The notes under the pieces were generated by a model. That model searched no databases, was not told the origin of the DNA, and was given only the letters and a program-made list of their open reading frames with translations. Made by a program: the position numbers and the translations under genes. From G963555815 sp965249615 [NCBI: bacterium] (GTDB lineage: Bacteria > UBA8248 > JACPRG01), in contig CBDFMI010000006.1 in NCBI GenBank assembly GCA_965249615.1, positions 682,001 to 746,000 on the forward strand: DNA of 64,000 nt, given 5' to 3'. Of the stretch, positions 19,924 to 57,446 are shown in pieces (the stretch's first letter is position 1; each line of letters opens with the position of its first letter).

Positions 19924-21468
19924 TCAGAGAGGAATGTTACCGTGTTTCTTTCTGGGCCGGGTCTCGCGCTTATTCAAGGTCATCTCGAGGGCTCGGGTGA
20001 GCTCTAAGCGCGTGACGCGGGGCTCGATGATGGCGTCCACGTAGCCCAGCGCCGCTGCCGTGTAGGGTTTGGTGAACTTTTCCCTGAACTCTTCAAGCTT
20101 CTCCGTACGTTTTGCCTCGGGGTCCTCGGCCTCGGCGATCTCGCGGCGGAAGATGATGTTGGCCGCCGCCTCCGGCCCCATGACGGCGATCTCCGCTGTG
20201 GGGTAGGCCAGGACCCGGTCGAACCCCATGTCCCGCGCGCTCAAAGAGATATAGGCCCCTCCGTAGGCCTTCCTCAGGATGAGGCTTATCTTGGGAACCG
20301 TCGCCTCTGAGTAGGCGTAGAGCACCTTGGCCCCGTGGCGGATGATCCCCCCGAACTCCTGCTGGGTCCCCGGAAGGAAGCCCGGGACGTCCACAAAGGT
20401 GATCAGGGGGAGGTTGAAGCAGTCGCAGAAGCGGACAAAGCGGGAGATCTTGTCCGAGGAGTTGATGTCGAGGACCCCGGCCAGGACCGCGGGCTGGTTG
20501 CCCACGACTCCGACGGGGTGGCCGTTCAGCCGAGCAAAGCCGACGACGGCGTTCTTGGCATATTCGGGCTGGACCTCCAGGAGGTCCCCGTGGTCAAAGA
20601 CCCGGCAAAAGACCTCGCGGATATCGTAGGGTTCTTGCGGACGGACGGGGATGATGCGTTCTAGCTCCTCATCCTCAAGGGGAGGAGAATCGGTGGGCTC
20701 GGCCTGCGGGGGGTCATCCAGGTTGTTGGAAGGCAAAAAACTCAGAAGCTTTTTCACGAGGGAGAGACTTTCGCGCTCCGTCTGGGAGACAAAGTGGGCA
20801 ACCCCGCTCTGGGTTCCGTGGACCGCGGCCCCTCCCAGCTCCTCAAAGGTCACCTCTTCTCCCGTCACGGCCTTGATGACGTCAGGGCCGGTGATGAACA
20901 TCTGGCTCATCCCCTCGACCATGAAGATGAAATCCGTGATGGCGGGGGAGTAGACCGCGCCCCCGGCGCAGGGTCCCAGGATGATAGTGATCTGGGGGAT
21001 GACGCCTGAGGCGTGGGTGTTTCTGAGGAAGATCTTGGCGTAGCCCGTCAGGGAGGAGATGCCCTCCTGAATCCTGGCGCCGCCGGAGTCATTGATCTGC
21101 AGGAAGGGGCATCCACACTTTACGGCGAGGTCCATGGCCCGACAGATCTTCTCGGCGTGCATCTCACCGAGTGATCCTCCCATGGCCGAGAAATCTTGGG
21201 AGGCGAGATAGACGAGGTTGCCCTCGATCCGCCCCGAGCCCGTCACCACTCCGTCTCCCGGAGTACGCCGCTGGTCCATCCCGAAGTCGGCGCACCGGGT
21301 GGTCGCGAAGGCGTCAAGCTCGACGAAGGTCCCTTCATCCAGCAGGAAGTCGATCCGGTCGCGGGCCGTCATCTTCCCCCGCGCCTGCTGCTTTTGAAGG
21401 GCCTTCTCGCCCCCTCCCAGGCGAGCGGCCGCCCTGCGCTGCCGGAGCTCCTCGATGAGTCCTTTCAT
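19924..21468 (-). CDS. mmdA: Methylmalonyl-CoA decarboxylase alpha / acyl-CoA carboxyltransferase subunit
   Basis: A 514-residue carboxyltransferase of the propionyl-CoA carboxylase beta/MmdA family. The oxyanion-hole motifs GGARIQEG and GPCAGGAVYSPAITDF in the N-domain and FVDVPGFLPGTQQE with GAKVLYAYSEATVPK and LRKAYGGAY in the C-domain are intact. With the gamma, biotin and beta subunits following, it transfers CO2 from a CoA ester to the biotin carrier and drives Na+ export. Methylmalonyl-CoA is the most likely substrate, since MmdA resembles PccB more than OadA. ATG 21468 follows GGAGGA. Confidence 0.9.
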   Translation of the reverse strand: MKGLIEELRQRRAAARLGGGEKALQKQQARGKMTARDRIDFLLDEGTFVELDAFATTRCADFGMDQRRTPGDGVVTGSGRIEGNLVYLASQDFSAMGGSLGEMHAEKICRAMDLAVKCGCPFLQINDSGGARIQEGISSLTGYAKIFLRNTHASGVIPQITIILGPCAGGAVYSPAITDFIFMVEGMSQMFITGPDVIKAVTGEEVTFEELGGAAVHGTQSGVAHFVSQTERESLSLVKKLLSFLPSNNLDDPPQAEPTDSPPLEDEELERIIPVRPQEPYDIREVFCRVFDHGDLLEVQPEYAKNAVVGFARLNGHPVGVVGNQPAVLAGVLDINSSDKISRFVRFCDCFNLPLITFVDVPGFLPGTQQEFGGIIRHGAKVLYAYSEATVPKISLILRKAYGGAYISLSARDMGFDRVLAYPTAEIAVMGPEAAANIIFRREIAEAEDPEAKRTEKLEEFREKFTKPYTAAALGYVDAIIEPRVTRLELTRALEMTLNKRETRPRKKHGNIPL

Positions 21469-31390: not shown

Positions 31391-31930
31391 TCAAGCCCAT
31401 TTGATGGTGCAGCCAAAGGCGACGGTCTCCGGGTTTGGGATCTCCTTTCCTTCCAGGAGGGTGTCGAGGGAGTTTCTCAGGTCGTGGGATTTGGCCTTTT
31501 TGGGGTAATCCTTGTTGTCGTCGATCCGACCTGTGTAGCGAAGCTTGCTCGCTCCATCCAGGACAAAAATCTCGGGTGTGTATTCAGCCCCGAAAGCCTT
31601 CGCCACCTGCTGTGTCTCATCCCGAAGATAGGGAAAGTTGTAGCCCTTGGCCTTGGCTCTTTTGACCATGTTGTCGAAATTGTCTTCCGGGTAATGGACG
31701 CTCTCGTTGGCGTTGATGGCGACCAGCTGGACCCCCTTGTCGGCGTAGTCCCGCTGGATGGCGACGAGCCGCTCTTCGTAGGCCTGGACGGTCGGACAGT
31801 GGTTGCAGGTGAACATGACGACCACTGCCTTTTTCCCCTGGAAGGATTCTAGGGAATAGCTTTTTCCATCGACGCCGGGAAGGTCAAAAGACGGCGCCAC
31901 TTCTCCTATCGCAACGCGTTTTCTCTTCAT
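31391..31930 (-). CDS. Thioredoxin-fold protein (AhpC/TSA-redoxin family)
   Basis: A 179-residue redoxin. FTCNHCPTVQAYEERL has Cys42 and Cys45 in a CxxC-like CNHC, followed by VQLVAINANES and LRDETQQVAKAFGAEYTPEIFVLD (the cis-Pro loop). This CNHCP pattern occurs in AhpC/TSA-like proteins of thermophiles and deltaproteobacteria. The start is ATG 31930 with AGAGGAG upstream. It probably reduces disulfides or peroxides in the cytoplasm. It is in the same orientation as dinB but on the other side of a short gap. Confidence 0.9.
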   Translation of the reverse strand: MKRKRVAIGEVAPSFDLPGVDGKSYSLESFQGKKAVVVMFTCNHCPTVQAYEERLVAIQRDYADKGVQLVAINANESVHYPEDNFDNMVKRAKAKGYNFPYLRDETQQVAKAFGAEYTPEIFVLDGASKLRYTGRIDDNKDYPKKAKSHDLRNSLDTLLEGKEIPNPETVAFGCTIKWA

Positions 31931-31961
31931 CAGGAACACTCCTCTGAGACGGGGCCCGGCC

Positions 31962-33158
31962 TCAGGCTTCGGGCCTCTTTCGAAGGGGGAGTGTACGCCC
32001 CCTAACCAGTTTATCAAATCCGTAACGCTCCCGAAGATGGTCCACCCCCTCGTCGAGCTGCCGAAGACGTTTCCTTTGATCGGAGAAGAGGGCGAGCTGA
32101 GAGGGGGGCAGCGAGAAATTTGAGACCGTCACGCCCAAGAGTCGAAGTCCCATCCCCTTTGGATGGGATTTCAGAAATTCCTCCAGAAGGTCCAGGGCGG
32201 CGGAGACGATCTCCTGATTCAGGTCGGTGGATTCAGGGAGGGTCCGACCGTGCGTGTGGGTCTCGAAATCGGCGAACCGGATCTTGACCGTCACCGTGCT
32301 CGCCAAAAGCTTCTCGCGCCGAAGCCGCTCGCCCACGTCCTCTCCCAGATACCCCACGGTGGCTCGCAAAAAATCCCGGTCCTCGGTGTCCTCCTCAAAG
32401 GTGGTCTCCCGGCCGATGGATTTCGGGGCTTCCTCGTCCCCGGCGGTGGCCGCCCGGACGGGTGTCGAGTCCACCCCGCGGGCCCGCTCCTGAAGTTCTT
32501 GGGCGATGGCCCCAAAGCTTTGCCGAAGGGATTCCAAGGGGAAGGCGGCGAGGTCACCGAGAGTCCGAACACCGAGGGATTTTAGGCGGGCCTCGGTTTT
32601 AAGTCCAATGCCCGGCATGTGGGAGATGGCGAGGGGGGCCAGAAATTTTGAATCCTGGCCCGAGAGGACCCAGAAAATGCCCGCTGGTTTTGCCAGGCCC
32701 GAGGCGATCTTGGCCGAGACCCGACTTTGCCCGATCCCGATCGAGGCCGAGAGCTGGAGCGTGGTCTCGAGGGCCTGTCGGATCTCGTGGGCGACGGCGA
32801 GGGGGGGGCCGAGGAGTCGTTCTGTGCCCGTGAGGTCCAGATAGGCTTCGTCGATGCTGACAGGTTCCACAGCGGGCGCGTACCTCTCCAGGACCCCCAT
32901 GACCTTTTTTGAGGTCTCGCTGTATTTGGCGTGATCCCGGGAGACGACGACGGCCTGAGGGCAGAGTTTTAGAGCCCTGGCCATGGGCATGGCGGAATGG
33001 ACGCCGAATTCTCTGGCCTCGTAGGAAGCCGCGGCCACGACGCCCCTTCCAGTGTGTCCCCCGACGACGACCGGCTTCCCGACGAGAGAGGGGTCGCGAA
33101 GGCGCTCGACGGCCACAAAGAAGGCGTCCATGTCCACATGGGCGATGATCGTTGGCAT
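31962..33158 (-). CDS. dinB: DNA polymerase IV
   Basis: A 398-residue Y-family polymerase for lesion bypass. Catalytic acids are clear: VDMD (Asp9) and SIDEAYLD (Asp103, Glu104), then SIGIGQSRVSAKIAS and PGIGLKTEARLKSLG (helix-hairpin-helix). The C-terminal little-finger region has GRETTFEEDTEDRD and RLLGVTVSNFS, and the QLALFSD segment near the end matches the beta-clamp motif. ATG 33158 was chosen; the longer frame to 33251 has no similarity. No clear LexA box is seen upstream. Confidence 0.95.
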   Translation of the reverse strand: MPTIIAHVDMDAFFVAVERLRDPSLVGKPVVVGGHTGRGVVAAASYEAREFGVHSAMPMARALKLCPQAVVVSRDHAKYSETSKKVMGVLERYAPAVEPVSIDEAYLDLTGTERLLGPPLAVAHEIRQALETTLQLSASIGIGQSRVSAKIASGLAKPAGIFWVLSGQDSKFLAPLAISHMPGIGLKTEARLKSLGVRTLGDLAAFPLESLRQSFGAIAQELQERARGVDSTPVRAATAGDEEAPKSIGRETTFEEDTEDRDFLRATVGYLGEDVGERLRREKLLASTVTVKIRFADFETHTHGRTLPESTDLNQEIVSAALDLLEEFLKSHPKGMGLRLLGVTVSNFSLPPSQLALFSDQRKRLRQLDEGVDHLRERYGFDKLVRGRTLPLRKRPEA

Positions 33159-41220: not shown

Positions 41221-43032
41221 TTGGTCATTCGCCGAATTTTCCTTCTCGTCATTCTGAACTCTCTTCTCTTTGTCCTTCCTGCCGAGGCGGCTCGCCGGGT
41301 CGCCGTCCTTGACTTTGAGAACCGGTCTAGCGCTGAGACGAGGGAGCAGTACTCCTGGATCGGCCTCAACGTGCCCGAAACCCTCGCCGGGAAGATCTCC
41401 GAGGTCCCCGGTGTCCAGGTGATTGAGCGGGCCCAGTGGAGAAAGCTCGTTCAGGATCTCCGCCTTCAGCGTTCCGACCTCTTCAATTCGGAGAAAGCCG
41501 CTCAGGTCGGAGGATTTCTTGGAGCAAAAGTCGTCATTCTCGGCTCTTTTGCCGCCGCGGTTGGAAGCGCCGAGTTCAGCCTTCGTTTTGTAGACGTTGA
41601 GACAGGGGCATTTCTTGGAGATTTGAACCACGTCAGCCCCCTGGATGACCGTCTCTTTGAGGCCCTCACAGCGCTTTCCCTGGGGGCCGTTGAGGTCCTG
41701 AACCGCAGGGTGATCAACGGCGAGGTGGCCTCTTTACCTGCAGACGAGAGGATAGAGATTTCCGAGGAAACGAAGGAGAAGGTTCAAAGCCCGCCCGCCA
41801 AGAGTCTGGATGCCTATGCCTTGTTTGCCAAAGGAAACGAGGCGAATGAGCAAAACCACTCAGCCGACGCCATAGGCCTCTACCGAGCGGCCCTTTCCCT
41901 CGATCCTGACTACCCTGAGGCCTGGCAGGGGTTTGGGACTATCCTCACAAAAGACAAGAGGTGGGACGAAGCGGAGGAGGCCGAACGCCGTGCCCTTTCG
42001 CTTTTCACGGAGAGGGGAGACGAGCAGGGGAGAGCAGGTATCCTCAATAGCCTGGGATTGGTCGCCGTGAGCCGCGGGCGTTACGAGAAGGGCCTAAAAA
42101 TCCTCGAAGAGAGCCTCGGGATTAGGAGGAGGATCGGCGATGAGCCCGGGGTTTCGGTGACTCTGAATAACCTTGGCTTAATCGCCCGGACCCTGGGGCG
42201 CTTTGATAAGGCTGAGAGTCTCTATCAGGAGAGCCTGGAGATTAGAAAGAAGACGGGCAATGAGACGGGCGTTGCAAAGACGCTGAACAGCCTTGGCGAC
42301 GTTGCGGAGGGTCGTGGGCGATATGATGAGGCCCGGAAGCTTTATCAGGAGAGCTTGGAGATCAGAAGAAGAATTGGCGACGAGCGAGGCGTCGGAGAAG
42401 CGCTGAACAACCTAGGGATAGCCGACGCGAGGCGCGGGCGCTTGGAAGAGGGCGAGAGGTTTTTGCTGGAGAGCTTGACCGTTCGGAGAAAGGTTGGCGA
42501 TCAGAAAGGTGTCGGAGAGACGCTGAATAACCTGGGAATACTCGTCTGGAGACGCGGGCGCTACGATGAAGCCGAGGCTCTTTACCGGGAGAGCCTGAAA
42601 ATCAACAGGGAACTTGGCAACCATGTGTTCGTCGGAAGGGCACTGCATAACCTCGGCAATGTCGCCTGGACGCAGGGGCGCTTTGATGAGGCCGATCGGT
42701 TTTACCACGAGGCCCTGGAGGTCAGAAGGAGAATTGGGGACGCACGAGGTGTTGGGGAGACGCTGAACAACCTGGGGATTGTCGCGAGAAGACAGGGACG
42801 CTATGAAGAGGCCAGGGGCTTCTACCAGGAGAGCCTGGAGATCAGCAGAGGGCTTGACAACGAGTTGGGCGTCGCCGAGACCCTCTTCAACCTTGCTGTC
42901 ATCGCAGACAGTGAGGGTTCAACGGACCAAGCCATCCTCTACACGAGAGAGGCCCTCCAGATATTTCGCAGGATAGGAACTCCTCACGCTCAACAAGTTC
43001 AAAACTTCCTCCACAAGCTTGAGGGCCGTTAG
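41221..43032 (+). CDS. Secreted TPR protein with N-terminal CsgG/FlgO-like domain
   Basis: A 603-residue protein. Signal peptide at residues about 1-23 (LLVILNSLLFVLPAEAA), then an assembly-factor-like domain to about 170 (RVAVLDFENRSS, WIGLNVPETLAGKISEVPGVQVIERAQW, VVILGSFAA), a linker, and about nine tetratricopeptide repeats with a 40-residue period (NNLGxxAxxxGRxxEAxxLYxESLEIRRxxGD). TTG start follows GGGAG. A second copy of the same architecture is at 53924-55360 on the other strand. It may be a periplasmic scaffold. Exact role unknown. Confidence 0.85.
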   Translation: MVIRRIFLLVILNSLLFVLPAEAARRVAVLDFENRSSAETREQYSWIGLNVPETLAGKISEVPGVQVIERAQWRKLVQDLRLQRSDLFNSEKAAQVGGFLGAKVVILGSFAAAVGSAEFSLRFVDVETGAFLGDLNHVSPLDDRLFEALTALSLGAVEVLNRRVINGEVASLPADERIEISEETKEKVQSPPAKSLDAYALFAKGNEANEQNHSADAIGLYRAALSLDPDYPEAWQGFGTILTKDKRWDEAEEAERRALSLFTERGDEQGRAGILNSLGLVAVSRGRYEKGLKILEESLGIRRRIGDEPGVSVTLNNLGLIARTLGRFDKAESLYQESLEIRKKTGNETGVAKTLNSLGDVAEGRGRYDEARKLYQESLEIRRRIGDERGVGEALNNLGIADARRGRLEEGERFLLESLTVRRKVGDQKGVGETLNNLGILVWRRGRYDEAEALYRESLKINRELGNHVFVGRALHNLGNVAWTQGRFDEADRFYHEALEVRRRIGDARGVGETLNNLGIVARRQGRYEEARGFYQESLEISRGLDNELGVAETLFNLAVIADSEGSTDQAILYTREALQIFRRIGTPHAQQVQNFLHKLEGR

Positions 43033-53923: not shown

Positions 53924-55360
53924 CTAGCGGCTCTCGAGCTGCTGTATGAGGTGTTCCGCCCTGTCCACATATGGGCTTCCTATCCTGCGGAATGTCTCAA
54001 GGGCCTCTTTTGCCTGAAGGAGGGGCTGGTCCTTTAAGCCCCGGTCTTTTCCGAGAAGGGCGAGGTTGAAGAGGGCTAGAGCGGCGCCTGGGACATCGCC
54101 AGCTTCCTTTAGAATGTCCAGGCTCTCCTCATAGAATCCTTCGGCCGCTTTCAAGCGTCCGTCTCTCACGGCGATGATTCCAAGGTTATTCAGCGATCTT
54201 GCGACACTCAGGGAGTCGCCCAGTTCCCTCTTAATCTCCAGGCCTTCTTTGAGGAACGCCTCGGCCTCGCTGAATTCCCCCCGGCTATAGACGAGCACTC
54301 CCAGGTTATTCAGGGTTTGTGCGATGCCGGGCTCGTTGCCGGTTTTCCTTTCAATCTCCAGGTTTTGCCGGTAGAGCTGCTCGGCCGCGACGGTGCGTCC
54401 GCGATTCATAGCGATAATTCCAAGGTTATTCAGCGTCCGCGCGACACCGGGCTCGTTATCGATTTCCTGTTCAATATCCAGGCTCTCCTGGTAGAGCTCC
54501 TCGGCATCTTCGAGGCGTCCGCGCCTTTCCATGACGACGCCAAGGTAATCGAGGATTTCCCCTCTTCTTCTCTCATCTCCTCTTTCTTGAAAGATAGCGA
54601 GGGCACTCCTTCCGGCCTCCCACGCCTCTTCCAAGCGTTCGCGGTTTGCCAGGACACCCCCCAGGCCCTGCCAGGCCTCGGCGTAATCCTCGTCAAGTTC
54701 GAGGACCTGCCGGTAGAGGGAGATGGCCTCCTCCCAGCGATTTTGGTCATTCGCCTCGTTTCCTTTCCCAAATAAGGCATAGACCTCCTGATTCTTAGTT
54801 GGCGGCCTTTGAATTTTCTGCTTTGTCTCCTCGGTGACCTCTAACCTCTCTTCGGGAGGCAAAGCCACCACCTCGCCGTCTATCACCCTTTGATTCAGGG
54901 CGTCGACGGCCTCAAGAGAGAACGCCGCGAGAGTCTCAAGGAGGCGGTCATCTTTTGGACTGGTACGGTTGAAGTTCCCGAGGAGTGTCCCTGTCTCGAC
55001 GTCGACAACACGGAAATTGAAGTTGATCTCTTCTTCAAGGACGGTGAAGGAGCCGAGAATAATTGTGTTCACCCCAAGAAACCCTCCGACCCGGAGGGCG
55101 TTCTTTTGGTCAAGAAGATCAGAAGAGGAGAGCTTGAGTTTCTGGGCGAGATCTTTCCACTGGGCCCGCCCAATCACCTGGACACCGGGGACCTCGGAGA
55201 TCTTCCCGGCGAGGGTTTCGGGCACATTGAGGCCCACCCAGCCATATTCTTCTTTTGCGCCGTCTCCCGACTGGTTCTCAAGGTCGAAGGCGGCGACGCG
55301 GAGCGCCGCCTCGGCCGGGAGGGCGAGAAGGAGGGAAAAAAGAAAGACAAAGAGCCACAT
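53924..55360 (-). CDS. Secreted TPR protein, paralogue of the 41221 gene
   Basis: A 478-residue protein with the same plan as the gene at 41221: signal peptide (MWLFVFLFSLLLALPAEA), CsgG/FlgO-like domain (RVAAFDLENQSGDG, WVGLNVPETLAGKISEVPGVQVIGRAQW) and about seven 40-residue TPRs (NNLGIIAxxxGRxxAAExxYxxxLEIExxxGN). ATG 55360 follows AGGAG; the next upstream ATG (55387) has no site. The two genes lie on opposite strands about 11 kb apart, so the pair arose by duplication. The DNA repeats of about 120 bp are also recombination-prone. Confidence 0.85.
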   Translation of the reverse strand: MWLFVFLFSLLLALPAEAALRVAAFDLENQSGDGAKEEYGWVGLNVPETLAGKISEVPGVQVIGRAQWKDLAQKLKLSSSDLLDQKNALRVGGFLGVNTIILGSFTVLEEEINFNFRVVDVETGTLLGNFNRTSPKDDRLLETLAAFSLEAVDALNQRVIDGEVVALPPEERLEVTEETKQKIQRPPTKNQEVYALFGKGNEANDQNRWEEAISLYRQVLELDEDYAEAWQGLGGVLANRERLEEAWEAGRSALAIFQERGDERRRGEILDYLGVVMERRGRLEDAEELYQESLDIEQEIDNEPGVARTLNNLGIIAMNRGRTVAAEQLYRQNLEIERKTGNEPGIAQTLNNLGVLVYSRGEFSEAEAFLKEGLEIKRELGDSLSVARSLNNLGIIAVRDGRLKAAEGFYEESLDILKEAGDVPGAALALFNLALLGKDRGLKDQPLLQAKEALETFRRIGSPYVDRAEHLIQQLESR

Positions 55361-55502
55361 TGCGCCCGTTCTCCTATGGGGGCGCATGACGTTGGTCGGG
55401 AAAGGCAATGAGGAGAGGTCTTTTCGCGTCGTCACCGTTTAGCTCGCCTTTCGCTTGGCAAAGGGTCGCCTGAGGCCGACCCCCCACACTGGTTCCAGGT
55501 TT

Positions 55503-56225
55503 TCAGACCTCAACGGGGATCCGTCCCGGGACACGGCGGTCGTCCATCGTCTTTTGGACAGGGCGCGATGGGTCATCCTCTGTCACGAGCTGTGCCAAGA
55601 CCTCGTCAATGGCATCGGCGTCTGTCCAGCTGCACTTGTACACTATCTCCCCCTCCTTATTTACTACATAGACAAGGTTCGGGAGACCTCCAACGATCCG
55701 GTGGGCCTTCTCGTCAACGCCATCCACCAGGCAGGGGATGGTCAGGTCATGTTTTTTCACAAGGAGCTTTGCAACCTCCATCTTATGCTCGTCGCTCTCG
55801 TGAAATCGGTACTTGCGAAAACCCCCCTTTCGGAATTGGCGATAGCCCCGGTTTCCCGCATGGGGTTCCTGAACATACATGAGAAACACTTCCACATCCC
55901 GGTCCTTATACTTTCGCGCCAGTTTTTCCATGAGAGGCAACTGCCTCCGGCTTGGCGGTCAGGTGATGGACCCGGTGAAGAGGGCAAAGTGCTTTTTCCC
56001 TTGAAGCTGTTTTGTGTTGATCTTCTCCCCGGTTGCTATCTTCAGCTCTATTTCCGGGAACTGCGAGCCCAGGGGCAAGATCTTTGGAAACATCTTATAG
56101 TAGGACTTCACCGTGGGGTTCAGGAGGATCCCGAGCATCTTGCGGAGGTCGTAGTACTGCCACGACCAAAGGCCCGCCAACGGCCCCGGAGGTGTTCGCC
56201 GGTTTTGTTTATACTGGACAGCCAT
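55503..56225 (-). CDS. Candidate selenoprotein, deiodinase-like thioredoxin-fold protein with in-frame UGA (Sec89)
   Basis: Read through, the frame from 56225 to 55503 encodes 240 residues. The N-terminal part has PTVKSYYKMFPKILPLGSQFPEIELK, then GKKHFALFTGSIT. UGA at 55961-55959 is codon 89, and the frame goes on with PPSRRQLPLMEKLARKYKDRD and FLMYVQEPHAGNRG. In iodothyronine deiodinases and related thioredoxin-fold proteins a Sec or Cys stands in the same place (Thr-U-Pro-Pro). A hairpin with GU in its loop follows the UGA. It starts 15 nt after the hpnH stop. If UGA is a plain stop, this would be two broken ORFs. Confidence 0.75.
55934..55947 (-). promoter_or_regulatory. Candidate bacterial SECIS hairpin
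   Basis: On the coding (minus) strand, GAGGCA-GT-TGCCTC is a perfect 6-bp self-complementary stem; sterically the closing A-T opens to give a tetraloop AGUU with G and U. The loop G is 18 nt after the UGA, inside the 16-37 nt range reported for bacterial SECIS elements. A G-U pair can extend the stem by one. The stem position relative to UGA and the GU loop are the features that SelB recognises. Confidence 0.6.
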
Positions 56226-56240
56226 TTCTTTTTGTCCCTT

Positions 56241-57446
56241 TCAAGCCTTCTCGTCGCGACGCCCGAGATGAGCTGGGGGGGATTTTCTTAAAAAATTAAA
56301 AAATCGCGCGGGTGTGCCCCCCCCCCGCTCTTTGGCCTCCCCGCTCAACTCCGCCATCGCCTCCTCGACATGTTGTGAGAAGACATATTCGGCGGGCCGC
56401 GCCTTGCCCAGGGGGATCTCCGGGGCCATGGGGCCGTCGGTGCGGACGCCTTTCAGGGAAACCATGAGGGCCTTCAGCGGGTGGGCCAGGGTGTCGGTGA
56501 CGGCGGTGGCCTCATAGCCGCAGTGGACCATGCAGTTGGAGCATTTCTCATAATTGCCGGTGCCGTACATGTCCCATTCGGTCTCTTCCAACAGCTCCTT
56601 GAAGGATGAGGTGTAGCCCTCGCCAAGGAGGTAGCACGGCCGCTGCCACCCGAAGATATTGCGCGTCGGGTTGCCCCACGGGGTGCAGTGATACTGCTGG
56701 TTTCCAGCCAGAAAGTCGAGGAACATGATCGACTGGCTGAAGGACCAGTGGTGGTCCTTGCCGTGACGGAAGATGTCACGGAAGAGTTGTTTGGTCTTCT
56801 GGCGGCTGAGAAAATGCTCCTGGTCCGGCGCCCGTTCGTAGGCGTAGCCCGGGGACACGGTGATCCCTTCGACGCCGAAGGTCATGACGTCGTCGAAGAA
56901 CCTCGCCACGTTATCCGGCTCAGCCCCGTCGAACAGCGTGCAGTTGATGTTGACACGGAAGCCCTTTTCGCGAGCCGCCTTGAGCGCCTTGACCGCCCGG
57001 TCGTACACGCCCTCCTGACAGACAGAGGCGTCGTGATGCTCCTGGTCGCCGTCAAGGTGGATGGAGAAGGTGAGATAGGGGCTGGGCTTAAACAGGTGGA
57101 GCTTCTTTTCCAGCAAGAGGGCATTGGTGCACAGGTAGACAAACTTCTTGCGGGTGACGATCCCCTCGACGATCTCGTCGATTTCACGGTGCAGGAGGGG
57201 CTCGCCTCCGGGTATGGATACGATGGGCGCTCCACACTCGTCGACCGCCTCCAGACATTCTTGGGCGCTCAGGCGCAGGTTAAGAATGGGATCTGGGTAG
57301 TCGATCTTGCCGCAGCCGGCGCAGGCCAGGTTGCAACGGAACAGGGGCTCGAGCATGAGCACCAACGGATATCTCTTGGTCCCGCTGATGCGCTTCTTGA
57401 GCACGTATGCGCCAACGCGAATCTGCTGAATCAGGGGAACTGACAC
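56241..57446 (-). CDS. hpnH: Adenosyl-hopene transferase, radical SAM
   Basis: A 401-residue radical-SAM enzyme that attaches adenosine to diploptene in hopanoid side-chain synthesis. VGAYVLKKRISGTKRYPLVLMLEPLFRCNLACAGCGKIDYPD with cluster Cys38-x3-Cys42-x2-Cys45, VSIPGGEPLLH, FSIHLDGDQEHHD and the C-terminal CSNCMVHCGYEATAV region are the HpnH signature. GTG 57446. The tail after residue 350 is weakly conserved and Arg/Pro-rich. It is 15 nt upstream of the candidate selenoprotein, so likely cotranscribed. Other hopanoid genes are not nearby. Confidence 0.93.
   Translation of the reverse strand: MSVPLIQQIRVGAYVLKKRISGTKRYPLVLMLEPLFRCNLACAGCGKIDYPDPILNLRLSAQECLEAVDECGAPIVSIPGGEPLLHREIDEIVEGIVTRKKFVYLCTNALLLEKKLHLFKPSPYLTFSIHLDGDQEHHDASVCQEGVYDRAVKALKAAREKGFRVNINCTLFDGAEPDNVARFFDDVMTFGVEGITVSPGYAYERAPDQEHFLSRQKTKQLFRDIFRHGKDHHWSFSQSIMFLDFLAGNQQYHCTPWGNPTRNIFGWQRPCYLLGEGYTSSFKELLEETEWDMYGTGNYEKCSNCMVHCGYEATAVTDTLAHPLKALMVSLKGVRTDGPMAPEIPLGKARPAEYVFSQHVEEAMAELSGEAKERGGGTPARFFNFLRKSPPAHLGRRDEKA

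What the first reader, a model, noticed from the sequence alone, without database searches (positions are those of the whole stretch)
55503..56225. Probable new selenoprotein: deiodinase-like thioredoxin-fold gene with an in-frame UGA and a bacterial SECIS-like hairpin
Two minus-strand frames that look like separate proteins (88 and 145 aa) are one frame. The only interruption is UGA at 55961-55959. The residues around it (GSIT-UGA-PPSRRQ) align in character with the deiodinase Sec loop (GSCT-U-PPF). Both sides are strongly protein-like. A hairpin GAGGCA-GU-UGCCUC with GU in its loop starts 14 nt after the UGA and the loop G is 18 nt away, within the range known for bacterial SECIS. It lies 15 nt behind hpnH, a hopanoid gene, and that pairing is not one I know.
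Basis: partly seen in the sequence, partly recalled or inferred. Interest (0 to 1): 0.88.

Follow-up and report, generated by a model that had tools for sequence, protein, structure and literature searches.

The report
Bacterial deiodinase-like selenoprotein gene
The gene almost certainly reads one UGA codon as selenocysteine and encodes a bacterial relative of the animal thyroid-hormone deiodinases; the family has been known since 2005, and this is a well-supported new member in a little-studied bacterial lineage.

Summary
One 240-codon minus-strand frame (56225-55506) is interrupted only by UGA at 55961-55959. The joined protein matches Pfam T4_deiodinase (43.6 bits, cut-off 27); neither half reaches the cut-off.

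The UGA is almost certainly selenocysteine. In the 18 held genomes of the related phylum (that of a Nitrospinae MAG), all 38 strong homologues have TGA at that codon. In 34 of these 38 a hairpin within the published SECIS limits lies 16 nt after the UGA, with compensatory changes, one of them silent in both codons. Those genomes carry selA (14 of 18), selB (14), selC (16) and selD (14). No genome is held for the window itself, so its own Sec machinery was not seen.

By sequence profile the closest solved structure is animal type III deiodinase. The Dio proton-relay residues Thr, Tyr, Glu, His, His are present in the window and in 37 of 37 homologues counted. I infer a deiodinase-type, single-Sec thioredoxin-fold reductase recycled by an outside thiol. 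Its substrate is unknown.

Deiodinase-like bacterial selenoproteins were reported in 2005, so this is a new member, not a new family. The hpnH neighbour is real but was not found beside the gene elsewhere.

The parts
55503..56225 (-). Deiodinase-like selenoprotein gene, 240 residues plus stop (TGA 55505-55503)
   Evidence: one frame, PF00837 above cut-off only when the parts are joined; 37-49% identical over 171-214 aligned residues to 37 homologues
55959..55961 (-). In-frame UGA read as selenocysteine (residue 89), motif GSIT-U-PPSRRQ
   Evidence: TGA at the same codon in 38 of 38 strong homologues of the related phylum
55933..55948 (-). SECIS-like hairpin: 6-bp stem GGAGGC/GCCUCU (outermost pair G-U), loop AGUU, loop 16 nt after the UGA
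   Evidence: -8.7 kcal/mol, within the bSECIS limits; covariation of the inner 5 pairs
55962..55970 (-). Codons Ser86-Ile87-Thr88, matching Dio2 Ser127 and Thr129 of the proposed proton relay
   Evidence: Thr in 37 of 37 homologues; Ser in the window, Ala in 37 of 37; Dio2 residues from PMC11592359 (passages)
55860..55877 (-). Codons Tyr117 to His122 (YVQEPH), with Tyr117, Glu120, His122 matching Dio2 Tyr157, Glu160, His162
   Evidence: Present in 37 of 37 homologues; aligned with Dio3 and Dio2 by profile
55800..55802 (-). Codon His142, matching the second relay histidine (Dio2 His182)
   Evidence: Present in 37 of 37 homologues; aligned with a His of Dio3 and Dio2
56241..57446 (-). hpnH (adenosyl-hopene transferase), 15 nt upstream, same strand and same frame; possibly co-transcribed
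   Evidence: TIGR03470, 562 bits; PF11946 and PF04055

Best explanation
The gene encodes a bacterial selenoprotein of the deiodinase-like family. SelB with Sec-tRNA(Sec) binds the hairpin just behind the UGA and inserts selenocysteine at position 89, giving a 240-residue thioredoxin-fold protein instead of an 88-residue fragment (recoding strongly supported by comparison; not shown by experiment). The active site is of the deiodinase type: Sec-Pro-Pro, no partner cysteine three residues on, and a Tyr/Glu/His/His/Thr set like the animal enzymes' proposed proton relay (shown by sequence only). The inferred reaction: the selenolate takes an electrophilic atom (oxygen from a peroxide, or halogen) from a substrate, a relay residue gives a proton, and an outside thiol resets the selenium, because no other cysteine is conserved. 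The substrate is not known. Co-expression with hpnH is possible but rests on adjacency alone. The stated confidence is for recoding and family; for the deiodinase-type mechanism I would give about 0.5.
For: TGA at the same codon in 38 of 38 strong matches (E <= 1e-60) among the 18 phylum genomes, and in 8 of the 10 genomes outside the phylum that match at 1e-20; the other two have Cys (G208) and Asp (G193) there. Joined protein: PF00837 43.6 bits. Profile against solved structures: Dio3 first (4tr3, E 7e-14), a ResA second (4nmu, 1.7e-13), Dio2 third (9h48, 1.6e-12), 42 sequences at 0.01. SECIS: 34 of 38 phylum members pass the model at 16 nt; 98.1% of stem cells paired in 21 distinct sequences, 2 pairs changed on both sides, covariation score reached in 0 of 500 shuffles. 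The window's A13-U24, against C13-G24 in 17 of 21, is synonymous in both codons. Machinery: selA 14, selB 14, selC 16, selD 14 of 18 genomes over the cut-offs. Relay residues Thr, Tyr, Glu, His, His in 37 of 37. In the 20-row alignment no cysteine other than the Sec position is invariant. Tree: the window is sister to one 12-row paralogue group, 99/95.
Against: No genome is held for the window's organism, so its own sel genes are unseen. The hairpin alone is not rare (75 of 2037 TGAs as good), and the gene's own terminal TGA is followed by a stronger one (-15.6). Of 47 sequences tested, window included, six fail the simple SECIS model: L013, L024, L036 and L117 (-7.0) in the phylum, L077 and L079 outside; 2 of 21 break one stem pair. 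One of 8 TGA-form genomes outside the phylum (G172) shows no tRNA-Sec, and 4 of 10 genomes without the gene have it, so co-occurrence there is weak evidence. No Cys form was seen among the phylum's strong matches. Redoxin and AhpC-TSA also match above cut-off. The structure model is weak (mean pLDDT 56) and the 50 fold matches shown hold no deiodinase, ResA-type thioredoxins leading. Nothing here tests activity, substrate or co-transcription with hpnH.
Confidence: 0.9

Rival explanations
1. It is a selenoprotein, but it works as an ordinary thiol/peroxide reductase (peroxiredoxin- or ResA-like); the deiodinase resemblance is ancestry only. This rival concerns the mechanism, not the recoding.
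For: Redoxin (40.8 bits) and AhpC-TSA (36.5 bits) also match above cut-off; a ResA ranks second in the profile search; ResA and Prx structures lead the fold matches; the 2005 paper itself suggests a redox role.
Against: The best profile match to a solved structure is Dio3, and the residues matching the Dio relay are present in 37 of 37 homologues. No UxxC pair is present in the window or in those 37.
Confidence: 0.5
2. Nonsense mutation: a Cys- or Ser-coding gene broken by a recent stop.
For: None found beyond the stop itself.
Against: Homologues at 37-49% identity have TGA at that codon; the frame and conserved motifs continue past it.
Confidence: 0.01
3. The organism reads UGA as an ordinary amino acid (for example Trp) throughout.
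For: An in-frame UGA is read through here.
Against: 28 of 56 gene calls examined in the window end in TGA, 14 of these with another in-frame stop within 18 codons; the position is the catalytic Sec/Cys of the family; related genomes carry tRNA-Sec and SelB.
Confidence: 0.01
4. Two separate genes, the second restarting after the UGA (for example at TTG 55940).
For: ORF listing gives an 88-aa and a 145-aa ORF.
Against: Neither part alone reaches a Pfam cut-off, the join does; the break falls at the catalytic residue of one thioredoxin fold; the 38 strong homologues are broken at the same codon.
Confidence: 0.02

Closest known systems
Bacterial deiodinase-like selenoproteins (PF00837; Sargasso Sea 2005, GOS 2008, reviews of 2022 and 2026)
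   Same: PF00837 domain, Sec at the thioredoxin-fold active site, bacterial SECIS behind the UGA, found in uncultured bacteria
   Different: Both reviews list the motif UxxC; here it is U-P-P-S, with Tyr or Phe at the last place in 37 of 37 homologues. The Nitrospinota members form three groups, up to three copies per genome
Animal iodothyronine deiodinases Dio2 and Dio3 (9h48; 4tr3, 4tr4)
   Same: Thioredoxin-fold core, GSxT-U-PP motif (crystal chains carry Cys for Sec), residues matching the proposed relay Ser/Thr/Tyr/Glu/His/His, no partner Cys at +3
   Different: Only about 130-150 residues align; no evidence of iodothyronine activity; here the SECIS lies inside the gene, while in eukaryotes it lies in the 3'-UTR (passage)
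NCBIfam NF038285 'deiodinase family protein'
   Same: 20 of 20 aligned members match it at E 0.1; in the window the match covers profile positions 178-324
   Different: Far below the cut-off (75.2 bits against 250 for the window); the profile has 347 positions, 177 of them before the matched part
ResA/TlpA thioredoxins and peroxiredoxins
   Same: Same fold and redoxin core
   Different: They usually rely on a CxxC pair or a peroxidatic Cys and lack the deiodinase relay residues (recalled, not tested)

Membership tests
Bacterial selenoprotein gene | In-frame UGA conserved in homologues, with Sec or Cys at that position | tested here: met
   TGA in 38 of 38 strong homologues in the phylum; a Cys form in G208 outside it
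Bacterial selenoprotein gene | SECIS hairpin: loop 3-9 nt, stem 4-16 bp, G in the first two loop positions, 16-37 nt from the UGA, energy <= -7.5 kcal/mol | tested here: met
   Loop AGUU, stem 6 bp, 16 nt, -8.7 (own script); limits from a passage of PMC13188914
Bacterial selenoprotein gene | selA, selB, selC and selD in the same genome | not testable with these tools
   No genome held for the window; in the related phylum 14, 14, 16 and 14 of 18 genomes
Bacterial selenoprotein gene | Selenium present in the protein | not testable with these tools
   Needs expression or proteomics
Bacterial deiodinase-like proteins | PF00837 match above the curated cut-off | tested here: met
   43.6 bits against 27
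Bacterial deiodinase-like proteins | UxxC motif listed for the family in the 2022 and 2026 reviews (the GOS table gives no motif, so I do not take it as defining) | tested here: not met
   Ser92 at +3 in the window; Tyr or Phe in 37 of 37 homologues; tables seen as passages
Animal iodothyronine deiodinase | Catalytic Sec with the Ser/Thr/Tyr/Glu/His/His relay proposed for Dio2 | tested here: met
   S86, T88, Y117, E120, H122, H142 by profile alignment to 4tr3 and 9h48 and by motif (PMC11592359 passages); sequence only, no geometry
Animal iodothyronine deiodinase | Deiodination of iodothyronines | not testable with these tools
   Needs an enzyme assay
Animal iodothyronine deiodinase | N-terminal membrane anchor | not tested
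   No transmembrane prediction was run; by eye residues 1-50 show no long hydrophobic stretch
NF038285 deiodinase_rel | Score above the curated cut-off (250 bits) | tested here: not met
   75.2 bits

The most novel reading that the evidence does not exclude
The Nitrospinota proteins, this one included, are true bacterial reductive dehalogenases that use the same Sec-centred proton relay as the animal thyroid-hormone deiodinases, acting on natural halogenated compounds. Deiodinase chemistry would then predate thyroid hormones, with three specialised paralogue groups in one bacterial phylum, one of them in the window tied to hopanoid synthesis.
Probability: 0.18. Interest if true: 0.75.

Novelty: new member of a known kind. 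Interest (0 to 1): 0.4.

Why it matters
It shows that an apparent pair of ORFs is one selenoprotein gene. It also shows that a bacterial phylum keeps up to three Sec-containing deiodinase-like proteins per genome, with the residues matching the animal catalytic relay unchanged. That makes the old question of what bacterial deiodinase-like proteins do testable on a defined set: express a Nitrospinota member and assay dehalogenation against peroxide reduction. A gene caller that takes UGA as a stop will split such genes in two.

Tried and rejected
Own-genome searches for SelB and tRNA-Sec, and laying the genome in the Python box, failed because no genome is held for the window. The single genome-contig scan gave one relative only, so its genome served as the centre for the rest. 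The structure model from two sequences was poor (pLDDT 56) and the 50 fold matches shown were led by ResA-type thioredoxins; no active-site geometry was read from it. Nonsense mutation, a global UGA reassignment and two separate genes were considered and rejected (see rivals). For the UGA-as-stop count I used 56 of the 64 ORFs picked mechanically; eight were left out (small or doubtful ones, the opposite-strand ORF over this gene, and one running off the window). A second selenoprotein in the window was looked for among these 56 as a TGA with long open frames on either side; nothing convincing was seen by eye. The redoxin at 31391-32017 has Cys, not Sec. A conserved hpnH-deiodinase pairing was tested and not found: none of 20 hpnH loci (L086-L105, about 1.5 kb flanks; 33 of 386 genomes had an hpnH match at 1e-60) nor the longer piece of G001's hpnH contig (L119) has a deiodinase-like hit at 1e-4; the 13 paralogue-3 regions fetched and the G066 region (L118) have no hpnH hit. 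The other two paralogue groups were not searched for hpnH. SECIS covariation was counted on 21 distinct sequences; the 6 distinct sequences with a 5-nt loop were counted apart, and L074-L080 and L117 were left out of that count. The relay count and the tree use 37 of the 38 strong phylum homologues; L117 (G016:C8) is not in them. Paper searches: 'Nitrospin' with 'selenoprotein' gave 0 papers and 'deiodinase' with 'hopanoid' gave 0, in the open-licence library only; one search also returned none; the 12 papers listed (listing only) are on animals, algae, metalloproteins or prokaryotic selenoproteomes in general.

Full report
Observation. The minus-strand frame 56225-55503 contains one internal stop, TGA at 55961-55959, and ends at TGA 55505-55503. 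Read through, it gives 240 residues with the recoded position at 89. The joined protein matches PF00837 T4_deiodinase (43.6 bits, cut-off 27), Redoxin and AhpC-TSA; the 145-aa part alone reaches 24.2 bits for PF00837 (below the cut-off) and the 88-aa part nothing. So the two ORFs are parts of one protein.

Homologues. No whole genome is held for the window. A scan of species genomes with the joined protein gave one relative, L001, a Nitrospinae MAG contig, 44% identical, also with TGA at that codon. A profile of the two, run over the 18 held genomes of that MAG's phylum, gave 38 strong matches (E <= 1e-60) in 17 of 18 genomes; the eighteenth, G003, gave only a fragment (3e-17) that ends two bases from its contig's end, and weak matches near 1e-6. 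G017 has a further fragment. TGA is at the aligned codon in 38 of 38: 37 read and the last, G016:C8. There are three paralogue groups, with up to three copies in one genome. In 386 relatives reaching beyond the phylum, 28 genomes match at 1e-20; of the 10 outside the phylum, 8 have TGA, one Cys (G208) and one Asp (G193) at that position. Results of the other kind: G004 also has two divergent relatives in tandem, one with neither Cys nor TGA there and one with TGA.

SECIS. After the UGA the window has a 6-bp stem with loop AGUU, loop 16 nt away, -8.7 kcal/mol (own script), within the limits of the published bacterial model (a passage of PMC13188914). By itself this is moderate: 75 of 2037 TGAs in the window and 76 of 5000 synonymous recodings do as well, and the gene's own terminal TGA is followed by a stronger hairpin. 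The weight lies in comparison. In 34 of the 38 phylum homologues a hairpin passing the same limits lies at the same 16 nt; L013, L024, L036 and L117 fail, the last narrowly (-7.0). Outside, 6 of 8 pass (one of them with its loop at 29 nt) and L077 and L079 do not. Among 21 distinct sequences (the window, 19 phylum sequences with the 4-nt loop, and L073) the five inner pairs are 98.1% paired, two pairs change on both sides, and none of 500 shuffles reaches the covariation score; the slid controls score lower on it. On one measure, the number of pairs changed on both sides, 150 of 500 shuffles do as well. The second stem pair is C-G in 17 of 21, A-U in the window, G-C in L073, and broken in 2. 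In the window the change against the common form turns Arg CGG to AGG and Pro CCG to CCU, silent on both sides. The 6 distinct sequences with a 5-nt loop keep a 7-bp stem, with one pair broken in one of them.

Machinery. Over the curated cut-offs, the 18 phylum genomes have selA in 14, selB in 14, tRNA-Sec in 16 and selD in 14; the 14 selD matches over the cut-off each contain an internal TGA. The completeness of these genomes is not given, and their contigs are many and short, so absences may be gaps. Outside the phylum 7 of 8 genomes with the TGA form have tRNA-Sec, against 0 of 1 with Cys, 1 of 1 with Asp, and 4 of 10 without a match at 1e-20. A general UGA reassignment is unlikely: 28 of 56 window gene calls examined (of 64 made) end in TGA.

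Where the window sits. The window's carboxylase (19927-21468) is closest to that phylum: the top 16 matches listed are phylum genomes at 64-70% identity, against 64% at most in the other matches listed; the list was cut, and G010 and G012 have no match at 1e-180. Its HpnH is closest to G001 (71%), although the other 17 phylum genomes show no HpnH at 1e-60. The tree puts the window sister to one 12-row paralogue group (99/95), on a long branch of 1.02; in that script this group bears the label c1 together with another group, because my labelling rule missed it, so the label counts printed there are not used here. The organism most likely belongs in or near Nitrospinota (the phylum name comes from L001's record title and the tree print).

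Function. A profile of 20 members finds Dio3 first (4tr3, 7e-14), a ResA second (4nmu, 1.7e-13) and Dio2 third (9h48, 1.6e-12) among solved structures. Dio2 was proposed to use Ser127, Thr129, Tyr157, Glu160, His162 and His182 as a proton relay (passages of PMC11592359). Counting along the 9h48 alignment from its Cys at 130, these fall on Ser86, Thr88, Tyr117, Glu120, His122 and His142 of the window. 37 of 37 homologues keep Thr, Tyr, Glu, His and His, with Ala instead of Ser. By eye, the outside forms L074-L077, L079, L081 and L083 lack the second His, while L073, L078 and L080 have one there. There is no UxxC pair, and no other cysteine is invariant. I infer a single-Sec enzyme recycled by an outside thiol. 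Whether it removes halogen or reduces peroxides or disulfides is open; the weak model and its ResA-led fold matches do not decide it.

hpnH. The upstream gene is hpnH (TIGR03470, 562 bits), 15 nt away on the same strand and in the same frame. None of 20 other hpnH loci, with about 1.5 kb on each side, and none of the 13 paralogue-3 regions fetched shows the pairing. It may be an operon of this lineage or chance.

Known status. Deiodinase-like proteins from bacteria were reported in 2005 (4 Sec and 6 Cys sequences; PMC1088965, passages) and again in 2008 (22 selenoproteins and 21 Cys homologues; PMC2398784, passages), and are listed in reviews of 2022 (PMC9312934, passages) and 2026 (PMC13188914, passages). 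This is therefore a new member of a known family. The conservation of the animal relay across the Nitrospinota set, and the paralogue expansion, I did not see described in the passages read; the searches made cover open-licence papers only, and the figures of the 2005 paper, which align its deiodinase-like proteins, are not held.

Noticed in passing
56226-56243 (-): hpnH ends in TGA and the deiodinase-like gene begins five codons later in the same reading frame; no SECIS-like hairpin follows that TGA, so it looks like a plain stop.
   Followed up: partly
55458-55487 (-): A strong hairpin (-15.6 kcal/mol) follows the true stop of the gene; possibly a transcription terminator, though without a long T run.
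   Followed up: no
56241-57446 (-): HpnH is 71% identical to that of G001, yet none of the other 17 genomes of the phylum has it at 1e-60; patchy hopanoid synthesis or transfer.
   Followed up: partly
L116 (G004:C1:368500-371500): Two divergent deiodinase-like genes in tandem, one with motif GSSSD and no Sec or Cys, the next with GSST-TGA-TMYN: a possible active/inactive pair.
   Followed up: no
G001-G018: In this phylum the 14 selD matches over the cut-off each have an internal TGA, so SelD is probably itself a selenoprotein there.
   Followed up: no
53924-55435 (-) and 41221-43032 (+): Two TPR-repeat proteins with a similar N-terminus (LALPAEAALRVAAFDLENQSG / VLPAEAARRVAVLDFENRSS) lie 11 kb apart.
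   Followed up: no
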